The notes under the pieces are model-generated. The model had not been told where the DNA came from and ran no database searches. It worked only from the letters and a program-made list of their open reading frames with translations. This document shows, in pieces, positions 11,618-31,929 of a DNA stretch of 41,647 nt (position 1 is the first letter of the stretch; the number at the start of each line of letters is the position of its first letter). The stretch covers positions 1 to 41,647 of the forward strand of contig JAUYKQ010000029.1 of the NCBI GenBank assembly GCA_030699905.1. The letters run 5' to 3'. The translations under genes and the position numbers were made by a program. The DNA comes from a bacterium. GTDB lineage: Bacteria; Patescibacteriota; Minisyncoccia; Phycocordibacterales; GCA-002787175.

Positions 11618-11702
11618 GGTGGGATGCGTGAGCGGTTTAAACGAGCGGTCTTGAAAACCGCCAGGTCGAAAGGCCTCGTGAGTTCGAATCTCACTCCCAC
11701 CG
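11618..11702 (+). tRNA. tRNA-Ser (anticodon UGA)
   Basis: The acceptor GGTGGGA/TCCCACC, anticodon stem GCGGT/ACCGC with loop CTTGAAA (anticodon TGA), a long variable arm GGTC-GAAA-GGCC and T arm GTGAG-TTCGAAT-CTCAC make a class II serine tRNA of 85 nt. The discriminator is G and CCA is not encoded. It marks the left border of the accessory island, and tRNA genes are common integration neighbourhoods. No second copy of its 3' end was found at the right border. Confidence 0.93.
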
Positions 11703-11780
11703 CATTGACAACCTGTTAGTTTTGTGTCCCGCAAGCTCGACGCCGAGATGTGACCCACAAAGCTACTTACGGGTTTAAAT

Positions 11781-12338
11781 TTAATAGTATTTTTGAACAA
11801 TAGCGAGAAACAGCTCGGCGTTTTTTCGCATCAAATCTTTCATCTCAGGAGTTAGATCAATCTCTCCATGATAATCCGCTAGCTCACCCCTATTGGTCAC
11901 CTCGAAATACGACTCCGCATTTGTTATGAATGAATGCACAAGCGGATCATCCTTCAGTGCGATACGAATGTTGTCTATCTGCCTGCCTGAGTAGTTTCGC
12001 GTGGGATCGGGTAAAAAGAGAATCCTTGTGATACCTGGCATTTCTTTAGGGGTCACATCGTGCAAATTCCCATCAGTATCTTTCCACACCGCATGGAATT
12101 CTGCTTCTGCCATAACGTCTGGCATCGTCTCCCATATCTGCCAACCGTATTGAATGGAACCACCAGATTTATGGATAGCCTTATCTACATTGCCATAGCA
12201 CTCATTCACGATAGCTTCCTCGACAGGTTCGATCTCCAAGTACACAGCTTTCTGTCCGGGTGCAACTTTCTGACAGAGTGCAATGATCTCCGGCAACGTA
12301 CCATCCGCAGTTTTGGGTAATGGAAGATTTGGTGGCAT
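11781..12338 (-). CDS. conserved hypothetical protein
   Basis: This 185-aa soluble protein has no motif I can name with certainty. It contains a stretch of conserved look, VNECYGNVDKAI with GGSIQYGWQIWE and AEFHAVWKDTDGNLHDVTPK, that resembles small hypothetical proteins found in many bacteria. The ATG at 12338 is chosen over the in-frame TTG at 12347 because TATAAT (12353-12348 on the minus strand) lies 9 nt before it. It sits between tRNA-Ser and the serine recombinase and is probably part of the island. Confidence 0.65.
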   Translation of the reverse strand: MPPNLPLPKTADGTLPEIIALCQKVAPGQKAVYLEIEPVEEAIVNECYGNVDKAIHKSGGSIQYGWQIWETMPDVMAEAEFHAVWKDTDGNLHDVTPKEMPGITRILFLPDPTRNYSGRQIDNIRIALKDDPLVHSFITNAESYFEVTNRGELADYHGEIDLTPEMKDLMRKNAELFLAIVQKYY

Positions 12339-12347
12339 ATCGTGCAA

Positions 12348-12382
12348 ATTATAACAAAAACCACCGGTTAAGGTGGTTTGCG
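12348..12382 (-). terminator. terminator of recombinase gene with promoter of the next gene
   Basis: On the minus strand AAACCACC-TTAACC-GGTGGTTT followed by TTTG is a compact 8-bp hairpin with a T tract, 20 nt after the recombinase stop. Directly after it lies TATAAT, the -10 box of the 185-aa gene. Confidence 0.65.
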
Positions 12383-12401
12383 ATTTCTATCCGAAAGACC
12401 T

Positions 12402-13736
12402 CTATTCGTTCAGTAGCGTAATCTTCTTGTCGTTCAGCACGAGTCTCGATCGCAGATGTCCCATCAGCTCACGCTTCTCCAGTGGCGTGCCCTCGCGCAG
12501 AACATACTTCGCATATTCGCGCGTAGCAATATCATCCTCGTCAATCTGCATCTTAGGTTTTCCTTTGACCGCTAGTCGTTGCAGTCGGTTGAACCGCTTG
12601 ATCTCTTCCTCAAGCTTCATCCGCATACCCAGCTCGTTGATACTCACTTTGTCGATGACCTTGAACAGCTCCTCAATCAGTTCTTCCTCGCGGATGTACT
12701 TGTTCTTGCAGTTGCGATCCCTCGCCTTCGAGCAGGAGTAGTAGACGTACTTTGCGTTCGTACCGTCTTTGAGATCTTTGTATTTCTCTTGTGCTGTGAT
12801 GCCCGATCCACACATACCGCAGGTGAAGAGTTTGGTGAAGGCGAACTCTCGGTTTTCTCTGACTATCTTGTCGCGCTTCAGTTGTTCCTGCACTTTCTTA
12901 AAGAGTTCTTCGGTGATGATTGGTTCGTGTGCTCCTTGATACCACTGTCCTGATTTTTTCGGATACTCGAAAGGTCCATAGTAGATTGGCATTTGAAGCA
13001 TCCGGTATACGCCAGAGAGTGTCAAAGGTCTGTTACCGCGTGTATGGAAGTTGAGGTCGAAGCGCAACCAGTTGTATACTTTGCGACCACTCCAGTGTTC
13101 GTATGCGACTTTCTCGAACATTTGCTTCACGACCGGCGCACGTTCTGGGTCTATAGCAATCCGGCATTTGCGATCCATCAGTTTCTGATTGAGGTACCCA
13201 AGTGGTGCCATTCCCGGCCACAGTCCCATCTCAACTCTTGTCCGTAGTCCTCGCTTAACATTGATCCCTCGGTTGTCGTTCTCAAGTTTTGCCTGACTTC
13301 CGAGAATCATCAGCAAGAACTTCTCGTTTGGATTATTCCTAAAACTCTGTCCATAGGTGCGTATTTCATGAAGCTTTCCTGCATCCATTAAGTCCACTAT
13401 CTTACCAAGGTCGCCAGCGTTTCTTGATATGCGGTCGGGTGCCCATGTCAGGATGCCGTTGAACTTTCCATCTCCCAGTTCCTCAACTATCTCGTTGAAC
13501 ACCGGCCGTTGTCCGGTCTCCTTAGCCGAGTGACTCTCTCGCTTCATAGTCACTACTTCCAGACCCTCTCGTTCAGCGAGCTGGAGCATCTCTTTAATTT
13601 GGCTGTCTATAGACAGCACCTGCCGTTCCTCTGACTCAGTACTTTTTCTCGCATAAAGGCAGTATCGAACCCTTATGGGGATTGCTTCTTGTTTGGCCAC
13701 CATCCCTTGTGGCGCTTGTATTGTTGCGTTTTTCAT
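12402..13736 (-). CDS. large serine recombinase / integrase
   Basis: This enzyme catalyses site-specific integration and excision through a serine-DNA link. The N-terminal resolvase domain has the active-site region YCLYARKSTE (Ser about residue 32 from the ATG at 13736) and WAPDRISRNAGDLGKIV. The recombinase domain follows (GLWPGMAPLGYLN). A zinc ribbon reads CGMCGSGITAQEK with CSKARDRNC downstream, followed by a coiled-coil-like charged tail. At 444 aa it is close to the usual 450-550. The frame extends upstream to a TTG at 13757, but the ATG is likelier. It is the probable mover of the 11.7-21.5 kb island. Confidence 0.95.
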   Translation of the reverse strand: MKNATIQAPQGMVAKQEAIPIRVRYCLYARKSTESEERQVLSIDSQIKEMLQLAEREGLEVVTMKRESHSAKETGQRPVFNEIVEELGDGKFNGILTWAPDRISRNAGDLGKIVDLMDAGKLHEIRTYGQSFRNNPNEKFLLMILGSQAKLENDNRGINVKRGLRTRVEMGLWPGMAPLGYLNQKLMDRKCRIAIDPERAPVVKQMFEKVAYEHWSGRKVYNWLRFDLNFHTRGNRPLTLSGVYRMLQMPIYYGPFEYPKKSGQWYQGAHEPIITEELFKKVQEQLKRDKIVRENREFAFTKLFTCGMCGSGITAQEKYKDLKDGTNAKYVYYSCSKARDRNCKNKYIREEELIEELFKVIDKVSINELGMRMKLEEEIKRFNRLQRLAVKGKPKMQIDEDDIATREYAKYVLREGTPLEKRELMGHLRSRLVLNDKKITLLNE

Positions 13737-13916
13737 ACAGCCCAATGAATGACGCAACTCGCTCTAGGAGTCTAGAGCGTCCCGAGTAGGTAAGAAGTTG
13801 GTAACTTTTTTGTTGAAATTGATTAATCTAGCCGGTAATACTGATCTGTGTTGAAGTAACGAATATCCTATGCAAGCACTTGTATCCCTTACAAGGGTAT
13901 GATATATATTAAAAAT
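13737..13916. promoter_or_regulatory. divergent region between recombinase and ATPase operon
   Basis: It holds a perfect hairpin GCTCTAG-GAGT-CTAGAGC (about 13761-13778), a CCCTT-AC-AAGGG inverted repeat that may be an operator (13886-13897), TTGTAT (13880-13885) and TATATT (13905-13910). TATATT is followed by AAAAAT and the ATG at 13917, so the small gene is probably leaderless. An attachment site could also lie here; none is proven. Confidence 0.5.
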
Positions 13917-14150
13917 ATGAGTAAAGGAACAGAAAAAGGAGAGACCCCTAGAGACCGATTCAAACGCTTAGCAACACTCCGAACAAATGGAGTCCTTCAA
14001 CGACTCAAGGTCTTGGGTAATTGTTCTAATCGACAAGCATACGAGTATGACGAAGAAGATGTCGATAAAATTTTCTCAGAGATTGACAGGAGGGTGAAGG
14101 AGATCAAGGCAAAATTCCACTTCCCTAAGAAGCGAGAATTTAAACTTTAA
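13917..14150 (+). CDS. 77-aa conserved-looking small protein of the ATPase operon
   Basis: The protein is basic and helical (RDRFKRLATLRTNGVLQRLK then LGNCSNRQAYEYDEEDVDKI), ending KREFKL. The start at 13917 is preferred over the ATG at 13899 because TATATT lies 6 nt upstream. The next gene, the GHKL ATPase, starts 4 nt after its stop, so the two are translationally linked. I do not recognise its family; its size and position suggest a partner or regulator of the ATPase. Confidence 0.7.
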   Translation: MSKGTEKGETPRDRFKRLATLRTNGVLQRLKVLGNCSNRQAYEYDEEDVDKIFSEIDRRVKEIKAKFHFPKKREFKL

Positions 14151-14154
14151 ACCC

Positions 14155-16719
14155 ATGAACCACAAGAAAAATAAACAAATCTTCCTGGATATTCTGAAAT
14201 GTCAGACCTCAGAAGAGATTGAGAAGATAATCAAGGCGGAAAAACTTGATGAGGAGGGGTGGTTATTTTATGGTGGACGATCGAACAATGTTGGTACCGT
14301 AGATGGGCAGATGCATGATGCAGACAACGCCCTGATGGAAAAGGTTACGAATTCCATCGACGCGATATTAATGCGCCGATGCTACGAAGAAGGTATAGAC
14401 CCCCGTGACCGGGATACTGCACCAAAAAATATGGCCGAGGCTATAGAACGGTTTTTCGGTGGCAAGGATAAACTTCGTGAAAAGCGCTCGGAGTTTGCAA
14501 AGGAATGGCTACGCGTAACTGCAGAAGGTAAGAAAGATCGCCCGACAATCACCATCATTGATAAGGGTGAGGGGCAACAACCCAATAACATAAAAAGTAC
14601 CGTCGTTAGCTTGAACCAAAACATTAAGGAAAAAATTCCGTTTGTTTACGGAACTTACAACCAGGGAGGTTCCAGTCCTTTAGGCTTCGCCGGCAACCCA
14701 AATACATACGATTTTAATTATGTGCAGCTTATTTTGTGTAGGAGACCTCCGTCTATTGAAGATAAAGTTAGAGACGCGAACTATGACCATTTCGGCTTTA
14801 CTGTAGTTAGAAAGCGATTCGACTATCCTTCTGAAAAATTCATATACGAATATTTGGTTGAGAAGTCGACCGAAGACATATTCTCTTTCCCTGCAGATGA
14901 ACCCATCAAGGTCGACAATTTCGATTTCGAAGAAGGGTGTCTTGTCCGGCTGTACGACTACCAACTTCCACAACGCGGCAACATTGTGTTTAGGGGACTC
15001 AACGAATTTATGGAGAAAAAACTCCCCGATGCACCACTACCAATTTATCTAAAAGAATTACGCGAATATAAGGGCGGAATTGATTACACAATTTTCGGCT
15101 TGCACGAAAAACTTCTAAGAAAAGAAGAGATACTCAGAGATGCATACCCGCAAAAGCTGCCCGTAGATCTTGGTGAGATTGGTAAAAAAGAAATTGAAGT
15201 TTTTGTAATTAAGCATAAAACGGAGGTCGAGTCGGATCTCAGTTCATACCTCGATACCACCGAGAAAATCTTTTTTATTAAAGATGGACTCGTCTTGCAT
15301 ACAGAAAGTCTTTCGTGGCTGAGGAACGAATGCGAACTCGTCGACCTATCCCCCTATCTTTTTGCGTTTATTGATATTTCTAATATCAATCCACCCATTG
15401 CACAGATGCTCCACTCTGGTCGCGAAAAGTTCAAGAATAATGCAACCACAAGACTCGCACTCGAACGATTGAAGATATTTTTTGCCAACGAGACATTCAA
15501 GGAGTTGGACAAAGAATATGCACGACTAGCATTCACTTCAGAGGACTCGTTTAAGGATGAAGCATTACGCAAGGAACTGATGAAAGAAATCGAGAGTCAG
15601 CCTGAATTACGAGAGCTGTTCGACCTCGGAGACGACTTCCCAGTTAAAGAAGACGAGGGAGACGAACCGCCCGTTGATCCTGAATATGAGGGCACATATC
15701 TACCCGAGAAATTTGATCTAGTGGGTTCTGACCCGCGTGAAGTTGAAGAGGGTTCTTATTGCAAAATATCCTTTGACACTGGGGCAGACTCTAAGCTTTT
15801 TGAACGTCGAGACGATCGCGGAGAGTATGATTGGGGTAAATCAGAGAGTTTTCAGATCGCCTTTGCTTCGTACAAAAATGGAAAGGTGACTTTCCGCGTC
15901 GATCCAAATCCTGATGCTAAGGCACCGAAAGAGGAGGCGCTGATTTTTCATCTAAGAGTGCCGTCAAAATCCATCGAAATGAACGGAACGGTCACACTCT
16001 CGCTCAAGGAAAGAGTGCCTTATATAGGTAAAGAGTTTCCAACTTTTTTCAATCCAACAAAAAAATCACTTCGCATCCCCATCGGAGAATCAATCCGGTT
16101 GAGGATCAACACCGACGCGACTGATGACTATTTCACAAGAGTCATTGATGCAGGGTCAATAATAATACAGCCACATGAAGATATTGATTTTGGAAAACCA
16201 AAACTACGGGAAGGCGATCTTTCTATTAAGTTGCGTTACAAAAACGACAATGTTCGCAAAGTTGAAGACGTTGTAATTGCCATCAAAGACAAAAAGAATG
16301 TTTTTGAAATTTCAATCCCGATTGAAATCATTCCTCCCGATACGGACCCTCAAGTAGATTTGCCTAAACCAGAGAGAGTTGAGCGGGCAAATTGGGAAAA
16401 CGATACCCCTGTCTGGGATGAACACTGTGTAGCAAGAATTCCTTCCTGGAAAGACTTGAAGCGTATTAAAATAAACGTGGATTCCAAACCTTTCGAAGAT
16501 CTACGAAAAATATCGGTTAACGACAGAGAGGTAGCAAAGGACGTGCTTCTTAAGCAAATCTATATAAATTCAGTATGGATGTTTTTGGAGTTCAAGGATC
16601 TGACACTTAATAACAACGGGGGCACCAGCACCACGGACCCGCGTGAAGAGGTGTTTGAGAAGGCAATCCGTGCCGCCTCAAAAATGACTATCCAAAATAT
16701 CAAGAAGTTACTTCGCTAG
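14155..16719 (+). CDS. GHKL (MutL/MORC-type) ATPase, large
   Basis: The N-terminal third has the Bergerat ATP-binding fold. The N box is ADNALMEKVTNSIDAI (E62, N66, D69), the G1 box is TIIDKGEGQQ near residue 136, and the G2-like region is YNQGGSSPLGFAG near 170. A transducer-like domain follows (to about 430), then a helical part with SGREKFKNNATTRLALERL. The C-terminal 350 residues are beta-rich, possibly Ig-like (VTLSLKERVPYIGKEFPTFF, VVIAIKDKKNVFEISIPIEI). At 854 aa it is far longer than histidine kinases and lacks their phosphoacceptor helix. GHKL ATPases of this type are known beside restriction-modification genes. It ends abutting a convergent DNA methyltransferase. Confidence 0.85.
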   Translation: MNHKKNKQIFLDILKCQTSEEIEKIIKAEKLDEEGWLFYGGRSNNVGTVDGQMHDADNALMEKVTNSIDAILMRRCYEEGIDPRDRDTAPKNMAEAIERFFGGKDKLREKRSEFAKEWLRVTAEGKKDRPTITIIDKGEGQQPNNIKSTVVSLNQNIKEKIPFVYGTYNQGGSSPLGFAGNPNTYDFNYVQLILCRRPPSIEDKVRDANYDHFGFTVVRKRFDYPSEKFIYEYLVEKSTEDIFSFPADEPIKVDNFDFEEGCLVRLYDYQLPQRGNIVFRGLNEFMEKKLPDAPLPIYLKELREYKGGIDYTIFGLHEKLLRKEEILRDAYPQKLPVDLGEIGKKEIEVFVIKHKTEVESDLSSYLDTTEKIFFIKDGLVLHTESLSWLRNECELVDLSPYLFAFIDISNINPPIAQMLHSGREKFKNNATTRLALERLKIFFANETFKELDKEYARLAFTSEDSFKDEALRKELMKEIESQPELRELFDLGDDFPVKEDEGDEPPVDPEYEGTYLPEKFDLVGSDPREVEEGSYCKISFDTGADSKLFERRDDRGEYDWGKSESFQIAFASYKNGKVTFRVDPNPDAKAPKEEALIFHLRVPSKSIEMNGTVTLSLKERVPYIGKEFPTFFNPTKKSLRIPIGESIRLRINTDATDDYFTRVIDAGSIIIQPHEDIDFGKPKLREGDLSIKLRYKNDNVRKVEDVVIAIKDKKNVFEISIPIEIIPPDTDPQVDLPKPERVERANWENDTPVWDEHCVARIPSWKDLKRIKINVDSKPFEDLRKISVNDREVAKDVLLKQIYINSVWMFLEFKDLTLNNNGGTSTTDPREEVFEKAIRAASKMTIQNIKKLLR

Positions 16720-18036
16720 TTACTTCTCCATCACAACCACGTACTCAAATTCGTAAGCGCGCGTCTTGGACGGATTGTCCATCCCTGTAAATTTTCCGCT
16801 CTCTATGTCGCGCCAAGGTGTGATCATCTTGTTGGGTATTTCCCGTTTGATGAAATCCACCTTTGTAAAACCAGCCGCTTGCATTTGCTCAGCTGCAACT
16901 TGGGCGTTCAATATCTCGACACCCCGGAGACTAGTATTGCCAATGATGACGCAAGCCTTTCCTCCTTTTTTGAGGATACGGTGTGTTTCAGCAAAGACCT
17001 TCTGCATATCGAGAAAATAATTGGCAACATCAATTGCGAGAGGCCTCTCTACAAGCATGAGATCATCCACAATCTGTTTGCCTATAACGCTATTGAAATC
17101 ACCTGTCTTTTTTGCCTTGGAGCTTGTACCTATGAAAGTGCGTCGGAAATCAATAAAATCATTACTGAAATGATGCCATTTCTTGAAGTGTTTCGGATCG
17201 TCTCCGAACCAAAGAAGTGAGAGCTGGTGGAGGTCAGCATATTCGTACGAAGTGACATAGGGTGGCGAGGTAACAATAAGATCGACGGATTCTGAATTGA
17301 TTGGGAATTTCTTTGTGGAATCCCTTCGATACATTTTAGCTGGCACAGTAATACGTCCTGATTCCGCAAGTCTTGCATAAAATAAATCGTTCTTTCTGAT
17401 CATCGAATCAAGGTGCCGGAGAAAGGATTGCTTCGGGACAGGAATTATCTTCTCCTTGTCGATTGTTGGCTTGATACTTTTCATCAACCAACGTGAGCAA
17501 TTTTTTAGATTGTGTGAAAAAGCGCAGAGGAAAAATCTTCGAACATTGTGGTTTTTAATCTTCTTAATCGCATAATAGATTTTATCGAGTTCGGCAATAG
17601 TCTCTTCATCGAACCAGTAGTTAATGCGGGGATGGTGCTGGTAAGAAACGTGTGGTGCGACATCGTAGTACCCCAGGAATCTTTGCCTGTGGTTTGCGAG
17701 AGTGCGAGGATTTATTGCAGTAGTCTTTGTTTGAGTGATGAGCTTTGCAACCGGATTAATATCGAAACCAATGCTGTGATGCCCTAAGAGTTTTGCTTCC
17801 ACTAGAGTGGTGCCACAACCTCCAAATGGATCGCAGACAACTTGTGCGTTGCCCGGTGCATAGTCTTCAATCAATTTACGAACAATCTGTGGAATGAATT
17901 TTGCTGGATACCGATGATAGTCATGCGTGAAAGCTGTAGTCTGCGAGCGACCTGCGTCACGAAAAGACCAATCCTCTCGTGGTTTAAGTGTTGAAAATAA
18001 TTTCTGTATCTCTTGTGTTGTAGCGACGGCCATCAT
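16720..18036 (-). CDS. DNA methyltransferase (N4/N6, DPFGG..SPPY order)
   Basis: The enzyme transfers a methyl group from SAM to an exocyclic amino group of DNA. RYPAKFIPQIVRKLI leads into the SAM-binding motif DPFGGCGTTLVEA (about residue 69), followed by GFDINPVA. The catalytic motif TSPPYVTSYEY is near residue 257, and the C-terminal KGGKACVIIGNTS is typical of this fold. Motif I before the catalytic motif fits a gamma-like order. The start at 18036 is chosen because GGAGAGGAG lies just upstream; the frame extends to 18069. Its stop abuts that of the ATPase with no gap, so the two genes converge. No restriction nuclease was recognised nearby. Confidence 0.9.
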   Translation of the reverse strand: MMAVATTQEIQKLFSTLKPREDWSFRDAGRSQTTAFTHDYHRYPAKFIPQIVRKLIEDYAPGNAQVVCDPFGGCGTTLVEAKLLGHHSIGFDINPVAKLITQTKTTAINPRTLANHRQRFLGYYDVAPHVSYQHHPRINYWFDEETIAELDKIYYAIKKIKNHNVRRFFLCAFSHNLKNCSRWLMKSIKPTIDKEKIIPVPKQSFLRHLDSMIRKNDLFYARLAESGRITVPAKMYRRDSTKKFPINSESVDLIVTSPPYVTSYEYADLHQLSLLWFGDDPKHFKKWHHFSNDFIDFRRTFIGTSSKAKKTGDFNSVIGKQIVDDLMLVERPLAIDVANYFLDMQKVFAETHRILKKGGKACVIIGNTSLRGVEILNAQVAAEQMQAAGFTKVDFIKREIPNKMITPWRDIESGKFTGMDNPSKTRAYEFEYVVVMEK

Positions 18037-18151
18037 TTCAATTATATCTCCTCTCCGGATGCAATACAAAGAATAAGAGCTCTGGGCGGTATATTATCGG
18101 AGTTGATAACCCCTCTTCGCAACCTCTCGAATCCGAGCTAAGGTTCCAAGT

Positions 18152-18170
18152 GATAGCAAAAATTGCTATC
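18152..18170. promoter_or_regulatory. palindromic operator-like site
   Basis: GATAGCAA-AAA-TTGCTATC is a perfect 8-bp inverted repeat in the divergent space between the methyltransferase and the thermonuclease, just before TACAAT (18180-18185), a possible -10 box. Confidence 0.5.
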
Positions 18171-18194
18171 ATGTACTTGTACAATTGAATATGT

Positions 18195-18392
18195 GCCCCG
18201 AAAGGGGCTAGGGCCTAAACCGGCAGCTTCGGCTCCGGCATGGCCTCAAAGCGCGATCAACGTAAAAACCCCGGCATCAGGGGCGTTGATCGCGTTATCA
18301 GGGGAAACTCTGGTAGGGGCCGCAAGGCTCACCTTGGTGTCCGGGTTTTTGTGTACCTGAACATCGAGTTTTAGCAACAAATCGCGATCAAC
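18195..18392 (+). ncRNA. candidate structured RNA / leader of the thermonuclease gene
   Basis: Several hairpins lie in close sequence with stable tetraloops: GCCCC-GAAA-GGGGC (18195-18208); GGGCC..CCGG-C-AGC-TTCG-GCT-CCGG..GGCCT (18211-18246); an 11-bp stem CGCGATCAACG/CGTTGATCGCG (18252-18294) enclosing CCCC/GGGG; and GCC-GCAA-GGC (18319-18328). Two alternative pairings exist. AAAAACCCcGG (18264-18274) can pair with CCGGGTTTTT (18341-18350). GTTGATCGCG (18285-18294) can also pair with a second CGCGATCAAC (18383-18392) 2 nt before the ATG. This suggests a regulatory leader or a free-standing structured RNA. The class is unknown. Confidence 0.6.
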
Positions 18393-18394
18393 AT

Positions 18395-19264
18395 ATGGTT
18401 AAAAAAATCCTCTACGGCGTAGGGGGTGTCATCGGGCTATTTATCCTTATCGGGATCTTTGCTCCATCACCTGAACCTACTCCAATACAACAAACACCCA
18501 TCGTAGCGCAAGAAGAAACAACAGCAGAGGTTGAGGTAAACGAACCTATAGCTTCAACACCGGAACCTGAACAGAAAACTACAGAAGTTCATCAACCGGC
18601 TGTCGAGCAAACACAGAAACCTCCTTCTGTTCCGGTTCAGACTCAGCCCCAATTTCAATACTATGCAGTCACTGATGTTGTTGACGGTGACACGCTCAAG
18701 ATAAATATGAATGGCACAGTGGAAACGCTCCGGCTTATCGGCATCGATACTCCAGAGACCGTTGATCCACGGAAGCCCGTACAATGTTTCGGCACCGAAG
18801 CATCTAACCGTGCAAAAGCATTACTCTCCGGTCAGAAGGTTCGCATTGAAGCCGACCCGACCCAGGACACACGCGACAGGTACGGACGGCTTCTCGTCTA
18901 CATCTATCGCGATGACGGCTTGTTCTTCAACAAAGCCATGGTCGCCGATGGGTATGCCTACGAGTACACATACGACAAAGCGTATAAGTATCAGGCAGAG
19001 TTCAAGGTGGCCCAACTCGCCGCGCAAAATGTCGGAAAGGGATTATGGTCACCGAACACCTGCAACGGCGTGGCCGACCCCGTATCCTCTGATACAGATA
19101 CTCAAACAACCGGCAAATACCACACCTCCTCATATGGTACGTCCAAGTACTACTACCTCGATTCTTGTGATGGCTGGCAAGATCTGAAGTATCTTGAGTC
19201 GTTCAACACGCTGGAAGAATTGCTCGCTAAGTATGATCGGGATTTGAGTCCTCAGTGCCAATAA
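18395..19264 (+). CDS. membrane-anchored thermonuclease (SNase family)
   Basis: The protein cleaves DNA or RNA with calcium outside the cytoplasm, if active. A single N-terminal membrane segment (residues 5-23) is followed by a 65-residue Pro/Glu/Thr-rich linker. The SNase domain at about 88-215 keeps the catalytic set: D97 and D99 in VVDGDT, R113 in LRLIGIDTPE with D118 and E121, and R165 in RYGRLLVYI. The C-terminal 70 residues (Ser/Thr/Tyr-rich, then CDGWQDLKYL) are of unknown role. No Shine-Dalgarno is visible; the start lies behind the structured leader. In CPR such nucleases are often linked to nucleotide scavenging, which is inference here. Confidence 0.9.
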   Translation: MVKKILYGVGGVIGLFILIGIFAPSPEPTPIQQTPIVAQEETTAEVEVNEPIASTPEPEQKTTEVHQPAVEQTQKPPSVPVQTQPQFQYYAVTDVVDGDTLKINMNGTVETLRLIGIDTPETVDPRKPVQCFGTEASNRAKALLSGQKVRIEADPTQDTRDRYGRLLVYIYRDDGLFFNKAMVADGYAYEYTYDKAYKYQAEFKVAQLAAQNVGKGLWSPNTCNGVADPVSSDTDTQTTGKYHTSSYGTSKYYYLDSCDGWQDLKYLESFNTLEELLAKYDRDLSPQCQ

Positions 19265-19283
19265 CGTCTTTGTTTTCCTAATT

Positions 19284-19964
19284 TTACTCGTCGTCATCTC
19301 CGGGTAGATCGAGGACAATCTTATTCACCACCTGACCGCCTGATTCAGCCTCGTCTTTGGGTGGCGGAAGATTTTGTTTAACAGTCTTTTCTTCGTCATC
19401 GAGGACTTCTCCGTTCCTTTTGGCATAGTGTCTTTTTGCTTCTTCCATAAGATTGTCGTCTGGGACTTCAGCTTTTCCGCTACGAACGTCCTCAAGTCTA
19501 TCCACAACCTCTTCTTCAGTAGATGGGTGTTTCTCTTTCTCATACACATCTCGTTCGTTTTCCATAAACTCTTTCATGGCGTCTGTATACCCAGTGGTAT
19601 ATGAGCGGATATCCTCTTTCTTTTTTGCGCTAATTGCTTTGTCACTGGTTTTGGTGTTTGAGTGAACGAGAAATACTTTCCTGTCTTTAGGTCTGTATAT
19701 CTTAGACTGATGGCTCAAGACATATTTAATTGCATCCATTTTCTTTTCTTTGACGTTCAACATCAGAGCGTGCTCAGCGAGTTCACAATTGTTTTCTCTT
19801 CCTCTCTTTATTGCTTCGGTGGCTTTCTTGTTGAATTGTTTATCATCTTTTTTCCAGCGGTAAAATGTTGCCTTATCAATGCCAGTTTTCATGCACGATA
19901 AATACACGTTACCGCTTTTCTCGATCTCCTTGAGAAGCTTTTCTTTTGTCTCAAGGTCTATCAT
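19284..19964 (-). CDS. HTH protein, phage terminase small subunit-like
   Basis: The N-terminal 60 residues form a helix-turn-helix pattern (EKSGNVYLSCMKTGIDKATF then YRWKKDDKQF), followed by EHALMLNVKEKKMDAIKYVL and SHQSKIYRPK, an arrangement like terminase small subunits and the phBC6A51-type HTH family. The C-terminal half is highly charged and probably disordered (GQVVNKIVLDLPGDDDE end). It begins 1 nt after the stop of the ParB-methyltransferase gene, so the two form one operon. It probably binds DNA; a terminase large subunit is not present, so a packaging role is not supported here. Confidence 0.65.
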   Translation of the reverse strand: MIDLETKEKLLKEIEKSGNVYLSCMKTGIDKATFYRWKKDDKQFNKKATEAIKRGRENNCELAEHALMLNVKEKKMDAIKYVLSHQSKIYRPKDRKVFLVHSNTKTSDKAISAKKKEDIRSYTTGYTDAMKEFMENERDVYEKEKHPSTEEEVVDRLEDVRSGKAEVPDDNLMEEAKRHYAKRNGEVLDDEEKTVKQNLPPPKDEAESGGQVVNKIVLDLPGDDDE

Positions 19965-19965
19965 G

Positions 19966-21291
19966 CTAGTTGATCTTTAGTGGCTTCTTGCCGGTTTCTT
20001 TTTCCCAGCGATGCAGGATGACCTGAGCGTACGTAGGGCTTTTCTCTATCAGGAAGCACCTGCGGTTCATTTTTACGGCGGCGATAAGCGTCGATCCACT
20101 TCCGCCGAATGGCTCCACGATCAAGTCATCGCGCTTGGTGAGCACCTTGATGTACGGGATGAGAATCTCAAGCGGCTTAGTACCGAAGATAATTCCTTGG
20201 CCTGATGACTTTTCGTCTGCCGATTTGTAGTCGATGAAGTCGGTTGGGCAGATTTTCTTTCCCTGTCCGTATGATTCCCAATGCGGTTTGCCGGATATCG
20301 CATAGAGGGCGGTTTCGTACTCGTTTTCAAGCAATTCGTCCTCATCGATACTTTGAACAGACACATCATCGGTAGCACCGACCATAGCGATGTCATGCTT
20401 TGAGAAGAATTTATTCTTCGCCGCGAATCCCTGATTCCGATTCGGCACATGCCAAACAATCATGTTCTTTACCTTCCAATACTTTTCCATCTCACTCCAA
20501 ATCGTGCGAATGTTTTTCCAGTTCTCGTACACGATTATCGAGAAACTTTCTTTTGCGATCTTGTGGACATTTCCCATCCATAGTTCAGTGAAATTATCCG
20601 GCAGAACATCCGTTTCCAGATACCTCCGATTTTTCTTGGCACCAAAGCCCGTTGTTACGCCGTCCTTCTGCTTCGTTTTTCCTTTAAGGTAGTCGAGGAT
20701 GTATGGCGGATCGGTAAAGCACATGTCGGCTTTGTGTTCGTCCATAAGCTTAAGCATGTCTGCCTCGATGGTTGAGTCACCACATAGCAATCGTGATCCA
20801 TCGAGTTCGTAGATATCTCCCTTTTGAACGGTGATGGTTTGGATATCCAATTTTTCAAGCTCTTTCTTGAGATCGAATTGCTCGATGTTTTCTTCTGTGG
20901 GAAATATGTTGTCTATCTCCTCGCTGTTGAAACCAACATCTTTGAGAAACTCTTCGTCAAATTCTGCGAGAAGTTCTAGATCAAACTCTCCAGTGTTTTT
21001 GTTAAGACGAACGTTTAATTCCTTTTCTTTGTCGAGGTCAGGAATGTTTACGTACACGACTGGTACTGTTTCGAATCCCAGCTCTTTAGAAACTTCCAAC
21101 CGAAAGTGTCCGCCGATGACAACACTCTTTCGTTCGATTGCGGAGTTAGCGATGATCGGATCGACTAGACCGAATCTGCGGATCGATTCTTTTAGCTGAT
21201 CCGCTTGCTCCTTGGAGTGCTTTCTTGGGTTGTACTCTGAACCCCGAAGTTCATTGATCGGAACTTCCACGATATGAATTTTGTCGTTCAT
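19966..21291 (-). CDS. ParB-domain DNA methyltransferase
   Basis: The first 115 residues form a ParB/Srx-like domain (VPINELRGSEYNPRKHSKEQ; IGGHFRLEVSKELG). The rest is an N6/N4 DNA methyltransferase with catalytic CFTDPPYILDY (about residue 196) before the SAM-binding VEPFGGSGSTLIAA (about 399), the beta-type order. This ParB-methylase fusion is common in phages and integrative elements. The start ATG at 21291 is chosen; the frame extends to a TTG at 21330. Two tandem hairpin repeats lie in front. It is in one operon with the HTH protein. Confidence 0.9.
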   Translation of the reverse strand: MNDKIHIVEVPINELRGSEYNPRKHSKEQADQLKESIRRFGLVDPIIANSAIERKSVVIGGHFRLEVSKELGFETVPVVYVNIPDLDKEKELNVRLNKNTGEFDLELLAEFDEEFLKDVGFNSEEIDNIFPTEENIEQFDLKKELEKLDIQTITVQKGDIYELDGSRLLCGDSTIEADMLKLMDEHKADMCFTDPPYILDYLKGKTKQKDGVTTGFGAKKNRRYLETDVLPDNFTELWMGNVHKIAKESFSIIVYENWKNIRTIWSEMEKYWKVKNMIVWHVPNRNQGFAAKNKFFSKHDIAMVGATDDVSVQSIDEDELLENEYETALYAISGKPHWESYGQGKKICPTDFIDYKSADEKSSGQGIIFGTKPLEILIPYIKVLTKRDDLIVEPFGGSGSTLIAAVKMNRRCFLIEKSPTYAQVILHRWEKETGKKPLKIN

Positions 21292-21343
21292 ATTTTTACG
21301 GTTAACCTGCTTATAAAGCAAAAGAGACAAGCCTTTCTTGTGG

Positions 21344-28580: not shown

Positions 28581-30290
28581 ATGACTTTTTTAGAAAACCT
28601 GATAGAAAAAAAAATATTAGAGAAAAAAGATATTGCCGCCATTAAAAGCGAAATTCAGAAAAGTGGCAAAGATCTTGACGACGCGCTAATAAAACGCGGA
28701 GTTTCAGAGGCGGTTTTGTTAGAGGCCAAGTCCTCCTATTTTGATATTCCAAAAAGGGTTTTAAACAGCCAAAACATTCCTTTTGAGACCCTGAAATACG
28801 TGCCGGAAGAGTCGGCTCTTTACTACCGATTTGTTCCTATCGGACTTGCCGACGGTGTTTTGGAGGTGGGCATCGTGGACCCTGACAATATAGAAGCTCG
28901 GGACGCTTTGAATTTTATATCGGCCAAAGTAAACCTGCCTTTCAAAATATTTTTGATAACAAAAACGGACTTTGACAAAGTCATGCAGACGTACAAAGGA
29001 CTTTCAAGCGAGGTTACGAGGGCTCTTACCGAGCTGGAGTCGGAACTGTCAGAAGAAGAAGTCGTGCAAGCGTCGGTTCAAAAGACCGCCGATGGCGAAA
29101 CCAGAATAATAGAAGAAGCGCCCGTTACTAAAATAGTCGCCACCATGCTTCACTACGCCACCGAAGGACAGGCCTCGGATATTCATGTGGAACATGTGGG
29201 AGACAAAGTCCGCGTTCGTTTTAGGGTTGACGGTATTTTAAATACCAGTTTGATATTGCCGGTCAAGGTGCACGCGGCTGTAATCGCCCGCATAAAAATA
29301 CTCTCCAATATGCGTCTTGACGAGAAAAGAAAACCGCAGGACGGCAGATTTTCGGCCAAAATCGCCGGAAGAAAAATTGACTTTCGCGTTTCCACTTTTC
29401 CTTCTTATTACGGCGAGAAAATAGTCATGCGTATTTTGGATACGGAAAAAGGCGTCTTGCCCACGGATAAAATGGGTATTTCAGAGAGAAATTTGAAAAT
29501 GATAAAAGAAGCGATTAACAGACCGTACGGCATGATACTCATATCGGGACCTACCGGTTCGGGAAAATCAACCACTCTTTACTCCATGATTAACGAGCTG
29601 GACAAGGAAAAAAAGAACGTTCTTTCTCTTGAAGATCCGGTGGAATACAACATCCCCGGCATGAGTCAGTCCCAAGTTCGTCCGGAAATCGGCTACACGT
29701 TTGCCTCCGGACTCAGAAGCACTCTCCGTCAAGACCCTGACGTGATAATGGTTGGCGAGATAAGAGACAAAGAAACCGCACAACTGGCCGTTCAAGCGGC
29801 TCTGACCGGTCACTTGGTTCTTTCCACCATACACACCAACAACTCTGTAGGTGTAATTCCTCGTCTTATAGACATGGGTGTTGACCCGTACCTTATCGCG
29901 CCGACTCTTATATTGGCAATCGCCCAGCGTCTGGTAAAACAAATATGTCCCCAAACAGGCAAGCCGATTCCGGTGGAAGGAAGCATTAAGGCCACTATAG
30001 ACAAACAGTTTGCCGATGTGCCTGAAGAGTTTAAAAAAGACATTGTTTTTGAAAAAGAGGTCTTGGAGGCGGTTCCGAGCGAAGAGTGTCCAAAAGGCAC
30101 GCGGGGACGTTTGGCGGTGTTTGAAATATTGGCAATGGATCGCGCGGTTGAAAAAGTCATTTTGGAAAATCCGACAGAAGCGGCTCTTATGGAAGTGGCT
30201 CGCGCGCAGGGCATGCTTACCATGAAAGAAGATGCCATAATAAAATCGTTTGAGAAGAAAATACCATGGGAGGAAGTCAACAAATTGTAA
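28581..30290 (+). CDS. pilB: type IV pilus extension ATPase PilB
   Basis: This hexameric cytoplasmic motor drives pilus assembly. An N-terminal MshEN/GspE-N domain occupies about residues 1-140. The ATPase core has DIHVEHVGDKVRVRFRVDG, Walker A GPTGSGKST near 325, the Asp box (SLEDPVEYNIPGMSQ), Walker B DPDVIMVGEIRD and the His box TGHLVLSTIHTN. The C-terminal zinc site of typical PilB is incomplete: CPQTG and ECPKGTRG keep one cysteine each where two pairs are usual. Length is 569 aa. Confidence 0.95.
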   Translation: MTFLENLIEKKILEKKDIAAIKSEIQKSGKDLDDALIKRGVSEAVLLEAKSSYFDIPKRVLNSQNIPFETLKYVPEESALYYRFVPIGLADGVLEVGIVDPDNIEARDALNFISAKVNLPFKIFLITKTDFDKVMQTYKGLSSEVTRALTELESELSEEEVVQASVQKTADGETRIIEEAPVTKIVATMLHYATEGQASDIHVEHVGDKVRVRFRVDGILNTSLILPVKVHAAVIARIKILSNMRLDEKRKPQDGRFSAKIAGRKIDFRVSTFPSYYGEKIVMRILDTEKGVLPTDKMGISERNLKMIKEAINRPYGMILISGPTGSGKSTTLYSMINELDKEKKNVLSLEDPVEYNIPGMSQSQVRPEIGYTFASGLRSTLRQDPDVIMVGEIRDKETAQLAVQAALTGHLVLSTIHTNNSVGVIPRLIDMGVDPYLIAPTLILAIAQRLVKQICPQTGKPIPVEGSIKATIDKQFADVPEEFKKDIVFEKEVLEAVPSEECPKGTRGRLAVFEILAMDRAVEKVILENPTEAALMEVARAQGMLTMKEDAIIKSFEKKIPWEEVNKL

Positions 30291-30357
30291 ATTTCTGTTT
30301 GAAAGTCAGAAAAAGTCCATTGAAAATCCGAGCTGTGGATACAAACTTTATTTACTT

Positions 30358-30366
30358 TGCTACAAT
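30358..30366 (+). promoter_or_regulatory. extended -10 of response regulator (leaderless)
   Basis: TGC-TACAAT is followed by ATATCT and ATG at 30373, the same 6-nt spacing seen at other leaderless genes here. Confidence 0.55.
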
Positions 30367-30372
30367 ATATCT

Positions 30373-30762
30373 ATGAAGGATTCGCAAACTGGAAAAAAAC
30401 TACTAATAGTGGATGACGATAAGTTTCTGGTGAATATGTATTCGGCCAAATTCAAATCCGAAGGGTTTGAAGTGGAAACGGCGAATAACGGCCAAGAGGC
30501 CTTGGGTAAAATAAGGAATGGTCTGCAGGCCGACGGGGTGGTCTTTGATATAGTCATGCCTTCTATGGATGGGCTGGAATTTTTGAGAGTGATGAAAAAA
30601 GAAAACCTTTTGCCGAATGCCGCTTCTATAGCCCTGACAAACCAAAGCCAGCCCACTGATATGGAAGAGGCGGAAAAGCTCGGTGTTAAAGGATATATAG
30701 TCAAGGCCTCCACTATCCCTTCGGAAGTGGTAGAGGAGGTAAGAAAAATTTTAAAAAAATAA
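30373..30762 (+). CDS. single-domain response regulator (CheY-like)
   Basis: The 129-aa product is one receiver domain: acidic pocket LLIVDDDKFLV, phosphoacceptor Asp in VVFDIVMPSMDGLEF, the conserved Thr in ALTNQS and Lys in GYIVKAS. There is no output domain. It lies between pilB and pilT and may control pilus extension and retraction, as PilG/PilH-type regulators do elsewhere; that is inference. No histidine kinase is present in the window. The start is set by the -10 box 6 nt upstream; the open frame extends further upstream. Confidence 0.93.
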   Translation: MKDSQTGKKLLIVDDDKFLVNMYSAKFKSEGFEVETANNGQEALGKIRNGLQADGVVFDIVMPSMDGLEFLRVMKKENLLPNAASIALTNQSQPTDMEEAEKLGVKGYIVKASTIPSEVVEEVRKILKK

Positions 30763-30855
30763 AATACGATTCCAATCTGCAAATGACACCGGCGCGACGC
30801 GAGAGCGTGTCTCGCCAATTTAAAACGGCTTCTCGTTTGTTTGCGGTATTGGGGT

Positions 30856-30861
30856 TACGAT
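30856..30861 (+). promoter_or_regulatory. -10 box of pilT (leaderless)
   Basis: TACGAT, TTGAAC, then ATG at 30868. The 6-nt spacing matches the other leaderless starts and supports ATG over the TTG at 30841. Confidence 0.45.
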
Positions 30862-30867
30862 TTGAAC

Positions 30868-31929
30868 ATGGACTATAAAAAAGAATTATTCAATCTGATA
30901 GAAGACGTCATTAAAGAAGGAGGGTCGGATCTGCACATATCGGAAAACAAGAATCCCACCATCAGAGTGTCCGGTTTTCTCGTGCCCCTTGTAAGCAAGG
31001 CGGTTTTGACCCATAAAGACACTATGGGTTTTCTTGACGAGCTTTTGGCTCCGGCAAACAAAGAACTTTTTATGCGAGAACAGGTGGTTGATTTTTCTTA
31101 CGGCTATAAGGACAAAGTCCGTTTCAGAGGAAATGCCTTTTTCCAGCAAGGGGCGGTAAGTATCGTTTTACGTCTTATACCCAAGGAGATTAAAACAATT
31201 TCCGAGCTGAACTTGCCTCCGATACTGGAGACATTCACCCAGAAGCAACAAGGGTTTTTTCTGGTTGTCGGTCCGATAGGACACGGAAAAACCACCACTT
31301 TGGCTTCAATGATAGAGCTTGTAAATCAGACACGGCCGGAACACATAATGACAATTGAAGATCCGATAGAATTCGTTTATGAACAGAAACAGTCAATCGT
31401 GGACCAGAGAGAAGTCAGGATAGACGCAAAGGACTTTCATTCCGCTTTAAGCAGTATGTTCAGGCAGGATGTTGACGTTCTGCTTATCGGAGAAATGAGA
31501 GATACCGAAACGATTTCAGCGGCAGTTACGGCGGCTGAAACGGGACACCTTGTTTTTTCAACTCTTCACACCAACAACGCCGCTCAGACAATAGACCGTA
31601 TAATAGATTCTTTCCCCGCCGCCCAACAAGACCAGATACGGGTACAGCTGGCATCCAGTTTGTCCGGCATTTTTTCACAGCGTCTTTTGCCACGTATCTC
31701 CGGCGGACTTATTCCGGCTTACGAGTTGCTTATAGCAAACAACGCGGTTTCCAACCTTATTCGTGAAAAGAGAAGCCACGAGATAAACACTGTTATAGAA
31801 ACAGGTCTTGACGAGGGCATGATATCATTAAACCGTACTCTGGCCGATCTGGTGCGAAGCGGAGAAATAACTGCCGAAAATGCCATGCTTTATTCTACGA
31901 ATCCGAAAATACTGGAGAGGATGATGTAA
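30868..31929 (+). CDS. pilT: type IV pilus retraction ATPase PilT
   Basis: PilT powers pilus retraction, twitching and DNA uptake. The 353-aa protein has the N-terminal PAS-like part (GGSDLHISENKNPTIRVSG), a Walker A variant GPIGHGKTTT, Asp box TIEDPIEFVYEQK, Walker B DVDVLLIGEMRD (acidic pair kept), His box TGHLVFSTLHTN and the C-terminal AYELLIANNAVSNLIRE pattern near the usual AIRNLIRE motif. The P-loop reads G-P-I-G-H-G-K-T rather than the usual GPTGSGKS, which still fits GxxxxGKT. Confidence 0.95.
   Translation: MDYKKELFNLIEDVIKEGGSDLHISENKNPTIRVSGFLVPLVSKAVLTHKDTMGFLDELLAPANKELFMREQVVDFSYGYKDKVRFRGNAFFQQGAVSIVLRLIPKEIKTISELNLPPILETFTQKQQGFFLVVGPIGHGKTTTLASMIELVNQTRPEHIMTIEDPIEFVYEQKQSIVDQREVRIDAKDFHSALSSMFRQDVDVLLIGEMRDTETISAAVTAAETGHLVFSTLHTNNAAQTIDRIIDSFPAAQQDQIRVQLASSLSGIFSQRLLPRISGGLIPAYELLIANNAVSNLIREKRSHEINTVIETGLDEGMISLNRTLADLVRSGEITAENAMLYSTNPKILERMM

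What the first reader, a model, noticed from the sequence alone, without database searches (positions are those of the whole stretch)
18195..18392. Dense structured RNA with GNRA and UUCG loops and alternative pairings before an exported nuclease
Four hairpins with GAAA, UUCG and GCAA loops lie within 200 nt, far more than chance. The 10-nt word CGCGATCAAC occurs twice, once in the 11-bp stem and again 2 nt before the start codon, so GTTGATCGCG can pair with either copy and mask or free the start. A second long-range pairing (AAAAACCCCGG with CCGGGTTTTT) is also possible. This could be a new riboregulator or a standalone RNA of the island.
Basis: partly seen in the sequence, partly recalled or inferred. 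Interest (0 to 1): 0.62.

Follow-up and report, generated by a model that had tools for sequence, protein, structure and literature searches.

The report
LOOT RNA switch before nuclease gene
The folded RNA in front of this exported nuclease gene belongs to a known but functionally orphan RNA family (LOOT), and comparing more than 100 relatives indicates that it is a two-state control switch built into the start of messages of very small parasitic or symbiotic bacteria (Patescibacteria), rather than a free-standing small RNA.

Summary
The structures are real (MFE z = -5.7), and the RNA is not new: 18212-18331 is a full-length match to Rfam RF03000, LOOT (77.9 bits, cut-off 46.4), which Rfam types as an sRNA; I found no published function. 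Collecting LOOTs from Patescibacteria showed four things beyond the Rfam model. (1) A co-oriented ORF starts within 130 nt of the RNA in 114/124 loci (random points 32%), while upstream gene orientation is random, so LOOT behaves as a 5' leader. (2) A 3' tail outside the Rfam model pairs with the whole apical loop of the central hairpin. The window pairing spans 19 nt, covaries across the family and excludes the local apical hairpin. (3) The CGCGATCAAC repeat is genuine: 16/99 LOOTs carry a copy of at least 9 nt of their own stem strand (0.2 expected), nearly all ending 0-6 nt before the ATG. (4) The tail can also fold onto sequence just downstream. Downstream genes are enriched for exported or membrane proteins, DNA methylases and nucleases. 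Best reading: a bistable cis-acting leader that lets or blocks termination and start-codon access. The signal is unknown and expression was not tested.

The parts
18164..18172 (+). candidate extended -10 promoter element (TGC TATCAT) placing the RNA 5' end near 18179-18181
   Evidence: Read from the sequence. Related LOOTs often show TATAAT followed by ACAAYTGAATA. TATAAT 6/6 occurs in 23/129 upstream regions against 7% of shuffles: modest support only.
18195..18208 (+). P0, accessory hairpin with GAAA loop (GCCCC/GGGGC)
   Evidence: Sequence and fold. Comparable optional hairpins at the same place in L100, L115, L118, L267, L269, L273.
18212..18245 (+). P1 hairpin with internal loop CCUAAAC / GCAUGG, a likely variant of the 11-nt GAAA-tetraloop receptor; UUCG cap
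   Evidence: Rfam LOOT model, 5' hairpin. Measured receptor variants of this type are described in PMC11381326.
18251..18262 (+). P2, 5' strand (GCGCGATCAACG)
   Evidence: Rfam LOOT; covaries in A1.
18263..18283 (+). apical region of P2; local hairpin CCCC-GGCAUCA-GGGG, and also the 5' partner of the tail
   Evidence: A local stem of at least 4 bp is possible in 90% of 100 LOOTs, mean 4.7 bp against 3.6 in shuffles. The window alignment uses 18263-18281.
18284..18295 (+). P2, 3' strand (CGTTGATCGCGT), which can pair with 18251-18262 or with the copy at 18383-18392
18296..18315 (+). P3 hairpin with GAAA tetraloop
   Evidence: Rfam LOOT. P3 loop is GAAA in 98/100 LOOTs.
18316..18331 (+). P4 hairpin with GCAA loop; end of the Rfam model
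   Evidence: Rfam LOOT.
18333..18351 (+). 3' tail (CTTGGTGTCCGGGTTTTTG), complementary to the apical region 18263-18281 and ending in a U-run; not in the Rfam model
   Evidence: Own against swapped tails: 32.7 vs 19.7, better than the row mean in 100/100; 39 non-redundant LOOTs 31.2 vs 19.5, 0/10000 permutations; 96.4% of cells paired and 8/12 pairs with changes on both sides in A1.
18355..18368 (+). anti-tail: can fold back on tail 18333-18346 as a local hairpin
   Evidence: Own against swapped: score of at least 20 in 43/99 vs 16 expected, 0/10000 permutations.
18383..18392 (+). copy of the P2 5' strand (CGCGATCAAC), 2 nt before the start codon
   Evidence: 16/99 LOOTs have such a copy of at least 9 nt vs 0.2 expected, 0/5000 permutations; nearly all end 0-6 nt before ATG.
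18395..19264 (+). regulated gene: exported or membrane-anchored Staphylococcal-nuclease homologue, 289 aa
   Evidence: PF00565 E = 8.7e-25. LOOT also precedes relatives of this protein in L100, L118, L120 and L159.

Best explanation
The feature is a LOOT RNA acting in cis as the 5' leader of the exported SNase gene. In the local state, P1-P4 and the apical hairpin of P2 form, the tail folds on its downstream neighbour, P2's 3' strand is occupied by P2's 5' strand, and the start codon is free (ON). In the alternative state, the tail pairs with the whole apical loop, giving a GC-rich helix followed by a U-run that could terminate transcription. That long helix cannot easily coexist with a closed P2. 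In the subset that includes this window, the released P2 3' strand can pair with the copy of P2's 5' strand placed over the start codon (OFF). P1 (tetraloop-receptor-like) and P3 (invariant GAAA loop) probably dock on each other and hold P2 closed, and the signal would act on that clamp. Shown here: family membership, leader position, covariation of the tail:apical helix, the start-codon copy, and the tail:anti-tail alternative. Inferred: the ON/OFF assignment, termination or translation block, and docking. Unknown: the signal.
For: Rfam RF03000 match. Same-strand ORF of at least 60 aa begins within 130 nt of the tail in 114/124 loci, against 32% at random points and 37% divergent upstream; first downstream ORF co-oriented 115/123, upstream 57 vs 74. 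Seven LOOTs in one genome precede seven different genes. Tail:apical covariation. P2 copy at the start codon. Tail:anti-tail. Computed duplex energies: P2 -19.6, apical:tail -22.7, P2-3':copy -15.5 kcal/mol, so the exchanges are in a comparable range. U-run of at least 4 T in the tail in 75/100. P3 loop GAAA in 98/100, and measured GAAA receptors of the CCUAAC/CAUGG and inserted-A types (PMC11381326).
Against: No expression or probing data. A terminator whose 5' arm lies about 50-70 nt upstream of its 3' arm is unusual. The best fold of the window is the local state by several kcal/mol or more, and pseudoknots were not modelled. About 84% of LOOTs lack the start-codon copy, so that part is not general. 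25% lack a U-run of 4 or more. Downstream genes are heterogeneous, which is unlike a metabolite riboswitch.
Confidence: 0.7

Rival explanations
1. LOOT is a free-standing small RNA with its own promoter and a long-range terminator. It acts in trans (or on a protein), and the downstream gene is only expressed by read-through.
For: Rfam types LOOT as 'Gene; sRNA'. Promoter-like 5' ends and a U-run tail would give a discrete transcript.
Against: Near-constant spacing and orientation to the downstream ORF. In a subset the P2 strand is copied exactly at the start codon of the adjacent gene. Neither is expected for a trans-acting RNA.
Confidence: 0.15
2. LOOT is a transcription attenuator only (a narrower form of the best explanation): tail:apical is a terminator and P2/apical hairpin is the anti-terminator. 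The start-codon copy and anti-tail are secondary.
For: GC-rich helix directly followed by a U-run in most members.
Against: The start-codon copy is far above chance, and 25% of tails lack four or more T, including some with the copy (L227, L143, L187).
Confidence: 0.35
3. LOOT is a ligand-binding riboswitch whose aptamer is P1-P3 (compatible with the leader reading; it specifies the signal).
For: Invariant core with a variable expression platform and many loci per genome.
Against: Downstream genes do not share a metabolic pathway. The invariant residues are explained by a tetraloop-receptor contact.
Confidence: 0.25
4. The repeats and inverted repeats are traces of a mobile DNA element or recombination site, not RNA regulation.
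For: The window region is island-like, with a serine recombinase and phage-type genes. Some LOOTs lie in phage contigs.
Against: Covariation uses many G-U pairs, which fit RNA pairing. Copies within a genome are diverged, with different flanks and genes.
Confidence: 0.05

Closest known systems
Rfam RF03000, LOOT RNA
   Same: Full-length covariance match above the gathering score; same P1, P2, P3 and P4 with the same conserved loops.
   Different: The Rfam model stops before the tail, has no tail:apical helix, anti-tail or start-codon copy, and types the RNA as an sRNA.
Transcription/translation attenuator leaders (riboswitch expression platforms, r-leaders)
   Same: A 5' leader with mutually exclusive helices, a GC-rich helix plus U-run, and sequence able to cover the start codon.
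   Different: No known ligand or protein. The terminator-like helix is long-range. The sequestering strand is a duplicated stem strand, and the same leader serves many unrelated genes.
11-nt GAAA tetraloop receptor (group I/II introns, P4-P6)
   Same: CCUAA(A/C) / (C/U)AUGG internal loop together with an invariant GAAA loop in P3. The same motif is seen in a peripheral hairpin of a group I intron, L052.
   Different: Position 5/6 is A/C or C/U instead of G/U, and docking in LOOT is untested.

Membership tests
Rfam RF03000 LOOT | Covariance score at or above the gathering threshold, full length | tested here: met
   77.9 bits vs 46.4, model 1-121 of 121
Rfam RF03000 LOOT | Conserved P1 internal loop, P2, P3 and P4 | tested here: met
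   Alignment to the model; own model R1 finds it at 75.1 bits
Free-standing trans-acting sRNA (Rfam type of LOOT) | No fixed relation to the downstream gene | tested here: not met
   114/124 followed by a co-oriented ORF within 130 nt, median 44 nt; 115/123 co-oriented
Riboswitch | Direct binding of a ligand by the leader | not testable with these tools
   Needs probing or binding assays
Riboswitch | Downstream genes linked to one metabolite or pathway | tested here: not met
   118 downstream proteins hit 93 Pfam families; the largest are DNA methylases, zinc ribbons, NucS_C and SNase
Attenuator with intrinsic terminator | GC-rich helix followed at once by a U-run, exclusive with another helix | tested here: inconclusive
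   Helix and exclusivity supported; U-run of 4 or more in 75/100; termination itself untested
11-nt GAAA tetraloop receptor | CCUAAG/UAUGG internal loop or a measured functional variant | tested here: inconclusive
   LOOT has CCUAAAC/GCAUGG or CCUAAC with U/CAUGG; related variants are measured in PMC11381326, but not this exact context
11-nt GAAA tetraloop receptor | A GAAA tetraloop partner in the same RNA | tested here: met
   P3 loop GAAA in 98/100; docking not tested

The most novel reading that the evidence does not exclude
LOOT is a Patescibacteria-wide regulatory RNA that controls a regulon of exported, surface and DNA-acting proteins through a strand-exchange switch: a tetraloop-receptor clamp decides between P2 and a tail helix, and a duplicated stem strand at the start codon reads out the choice. 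This would be a regulatory architecture not described before, possibly sensing Mg2+, temperature or host attachment.
Probability: 0.35. Interest if true: 0.82.

Novelty: new variant of a known kind. Interest (0 to 1): 0.6.

Why it matters
LOOT has been an orphan family typed as an sRNA. If it is a cis-acting switch, about a fifth of the sampled Patescibacteria genomes carry a common regulatory device in front of exported, membrane and DNA-acting genes. How these episymbionts regulate the change between attached and free states is described as completely unknown, with translational control suspected (PMC11665869). The alternative helices give exact mutations to test, and the Rfam model could be extended by the tail.

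Tried and rejected
A terminal helix between the 5' ACAA and the 3' UUGU looked good by eye but was not supported by permutation, 1411/5000 as high. The search for related loci with the nuclease in viral contigs gave no relatives. The first pattern scan of viral contigs mostly returned chance coding hits and group I introns; only L009, L060, L086 and L091 were strong LOOTs (weaker hits in L083, L073 and a second place in L060 were not followed up). The start-codon copy is not general: over all LOOTs the mean P2-3':downstream score is hardly above swapped pairs (16.1 vs 14.0), so the claim is limited to the 16-17 of 99 with long exact copies. P1 conservation in alignment A2 is inflated because many loci were collected with a P1 pattern; P3, P2 and the tail are not affected. 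Counts on the first hand-made structure strings failed for length and were redone.

Full report
Observation. An Rfam scan identified the core, 18212-18331 (+), as RF03000 LOOT RNA, 77.9 bits against a gathering score of 46.4, full model length. Rfam types LOOT as an sRNA gene. In the paper library it appears only as an example in the Rfam 14 paper, in a table of structures updated in the Rfam 15 paper, and as an extreme case of cross-covariation in the CaCoFold paper. No function was found. The 2017 paper that I recall as its source was not held.

Distribution. One LOOT is in this 0.8-Mb genome. It occurs in 20 of 60 relatives and 83 of 380 genomes sampled across the phylum, with up to 7 copies per genome, and in none of 14 control genomes. 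Named genome contigs with a LOOT are Patescibacteria lineages (Yanofsky-, Uhr-, Woese-, Nomura-, Adler-, Magasanik-, Andersenbacteria and others) or unnamed bins. The exceptions are a Bathyarchaeota contig and a Bacillota contig of metagenome bins, which I take to be mis-binned. Pattern hits in Pseudomonas, Acinetobacter and Thermococcus did not match the model. A few LOOTs are on predicted phage contigs. In L060 the RNA lies upstream of a portal-like protein, a major head protein, an amidase and a reverse transcriptase in the same contig.

Leader, not free RNA. I built an extended covariance model (R1) from 14 LOOTs and collected 135 loci. The first downstream ORF is co-oriented in 115/123, while the upstream ORF is on either strand (57 vs 74). 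With a stricter definition, an ATG ORF of at least 60 aa starts within 130 nt of the tail in 114/124 loci (median 44 nt), against 32% at random points and 37% for the divergent side. In one genome seven LOOTs precede seven different genes. The promoter-like 5' ends give only modest statistical support.

A tail outside the Rfam model. After P4 every LOOT has a tail such as GCTGGCGGGGAGCTTTTTG. In all 100 aligned LOOTs the tail is complementary to that RNA's own apical region of P2. The mean pairing score is 32.7 with its own tail and 19.7 with tails of other LOOTs, and own beats the row mean in 100/100. With 39 LOOTs non-redundant in the apical region it is 31.2 vs 19.5, 0/10000 permutations. 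In R1's alignment the tail was left unpaired, so this result was not built in. On the seed alignment A1, the 12-bp tail:apical helix has 96.4% of cells paired and 8 pairs with changes on both sides, and all measures collapse when partners are slid (whole structure: covariation score 0.55 vs 0.10-0.15). In the window the helix is TAAAAACCCCGGCATCAGG (18263-18281) with CTTGGTGTCCGGGTTTTTG (18333-18351). It excludes the local apical hairpin CCCC/GGGG. A local apical stem of at least 4 bp is possible in 90% of LOOTs, so both states appear maintained. A helix of 18-19 bp cannot be accommodated in a roughly 21-nt loop closed by P2, so full pairing should open P2 (geometric inference).

Start-codon copy. 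In 16 of 99 LOOTs at least 9 nt of the P2 5' strand recur downstream (0.2 expected from swapped pairs, 0/5000 permutations). With rare exceptions the copy ends 0-6 nt before the ATG. The sequences differ between LOOTs (CCCGCTACAGG, TCGCGACCAGC, ACCTCTACCAAAG, CGCGATCAAC and others), so the copies track their own stems. Nine of the 17 LOOTs with copies of 8 nt or more precede DNA methylases or nucleases, against 8 of 82 of the rest (p = 1.7e-4, post hoc). P2's 3' strand can therefore choose between P2's 5' strand and the start site.

A third pairing. The tail also pairs with sequence just beyond its U-run (score of at least 20 in 43 LOOTs vs 16 expected, 0/10000 permutations). In the window this is 18333-18346 with 18355-18368, and a hairpin of this kind is part of the computed best fold. 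It would keep the tail away from the apical loop in read-through messages.

Tertiary clamp. P3's loop is GAAA in 98/100. P1's internal loop CCUAAAC/GCAUGG resembles the 11-nt GAAA receptor. Receptor variants CCUAAC_CAUGG, CCUAAG_UACGG and CCUAAAG_UAUGG have been analysed as GAAA receptors (PMC11381326). The same hairpin motif occurs in the peripheral region of a group I intron, L052. P1-P3 docking across P2 is therefore plausible but untested.

What it controls. Pfam on 118 downstream proteins: N6_N4 methylase 7, D12 methylase 5, NucS_C 6, SNase 4, zinc ribbons 5-7, many singletons. Background in 31 related genomes is 57 listed methylase matches and 10 SNase matches in total, so both are well above expectation for genomes of several hundred genes. 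An N-terminal hydrophobic segment is present in 49% of downstream proteins against 16% of other ORFs in the same loci (odds ratio 5, p = 1e-12). The LOOT-SNase pair recurs in L100, L118, L120 and L159.

Mechanism. The duplex energies are comparable: P2 -19.6, apical:tail -22.7, P2-3':copy -15.5 kcal/mol. The simplest account is a bistable leader: local helices for ON; tail:apical (terminator-like, U-run of 4 or more in 75/100) plus P2-3':start copy for OFF. Position, covariation and the copy are shown by sequence. The direction of control, the termination or translation step, the clamp and the signal are inference or unknown.

Verdict. The finding is real and mostly correctly read, but the core RNA is a known family. 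What appears not to have been described, in the sources available here, is the leader role, the tail helix, and the duplicated stem strand at the start codon.

Noticed in passing
window 11618-21330: The LOOT-nuclease unit lies in an island-like stretch: tRNA-Ser, a serine recombinase (12402-13757 -), a terminase-small-subunit-like protein (19284-19964 -), a ParB-domain DNA methylase (19966-21330 -) and another methylase directly upstream on the other strand (16720-18069 -).
   Followed up: partly
window 14155-16719: An 854-aa protein without any Pfam or PHROG match in the same island.
   Followed up: no
window 28581-31929: Two neighbouring proteins (569 and 362 aa) both match phrog_19065/phrog_26606, unknown function, and may be a duplicated pair.
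   Followed up: no
L263 501-996 (G171:C3): Two LOOTs in tandem about 240 nt apart, each followed by a related small protein (MPKFKIDFWFDQEP.. / MPKYKIDIWFDQKP..), like a duplicated leader-gene cassette.
   Followed up: partly
L052 1131-1151: A group I intron (RF00028) in a viral contig carries the same GCCTAAACC..GGCATGGC hairpin motif as LOOT P1, in a stretch inserted between its conserved helices.
   Followed up: partly
L060 565-9056: A phage contig with LOOT upstream of a portal-like gene also encodes a reverse transcriptase (phrog_1423), possibly of a diversity-generating element.
   Followed up: no
G412 (L255-L261): A genome of about 0.7 Mb with seven LOOT leaders in front of seven different genes, mostly predicted membrane or exported proteins; a good test organism for a LOOT regulon.
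   Followed up: partly
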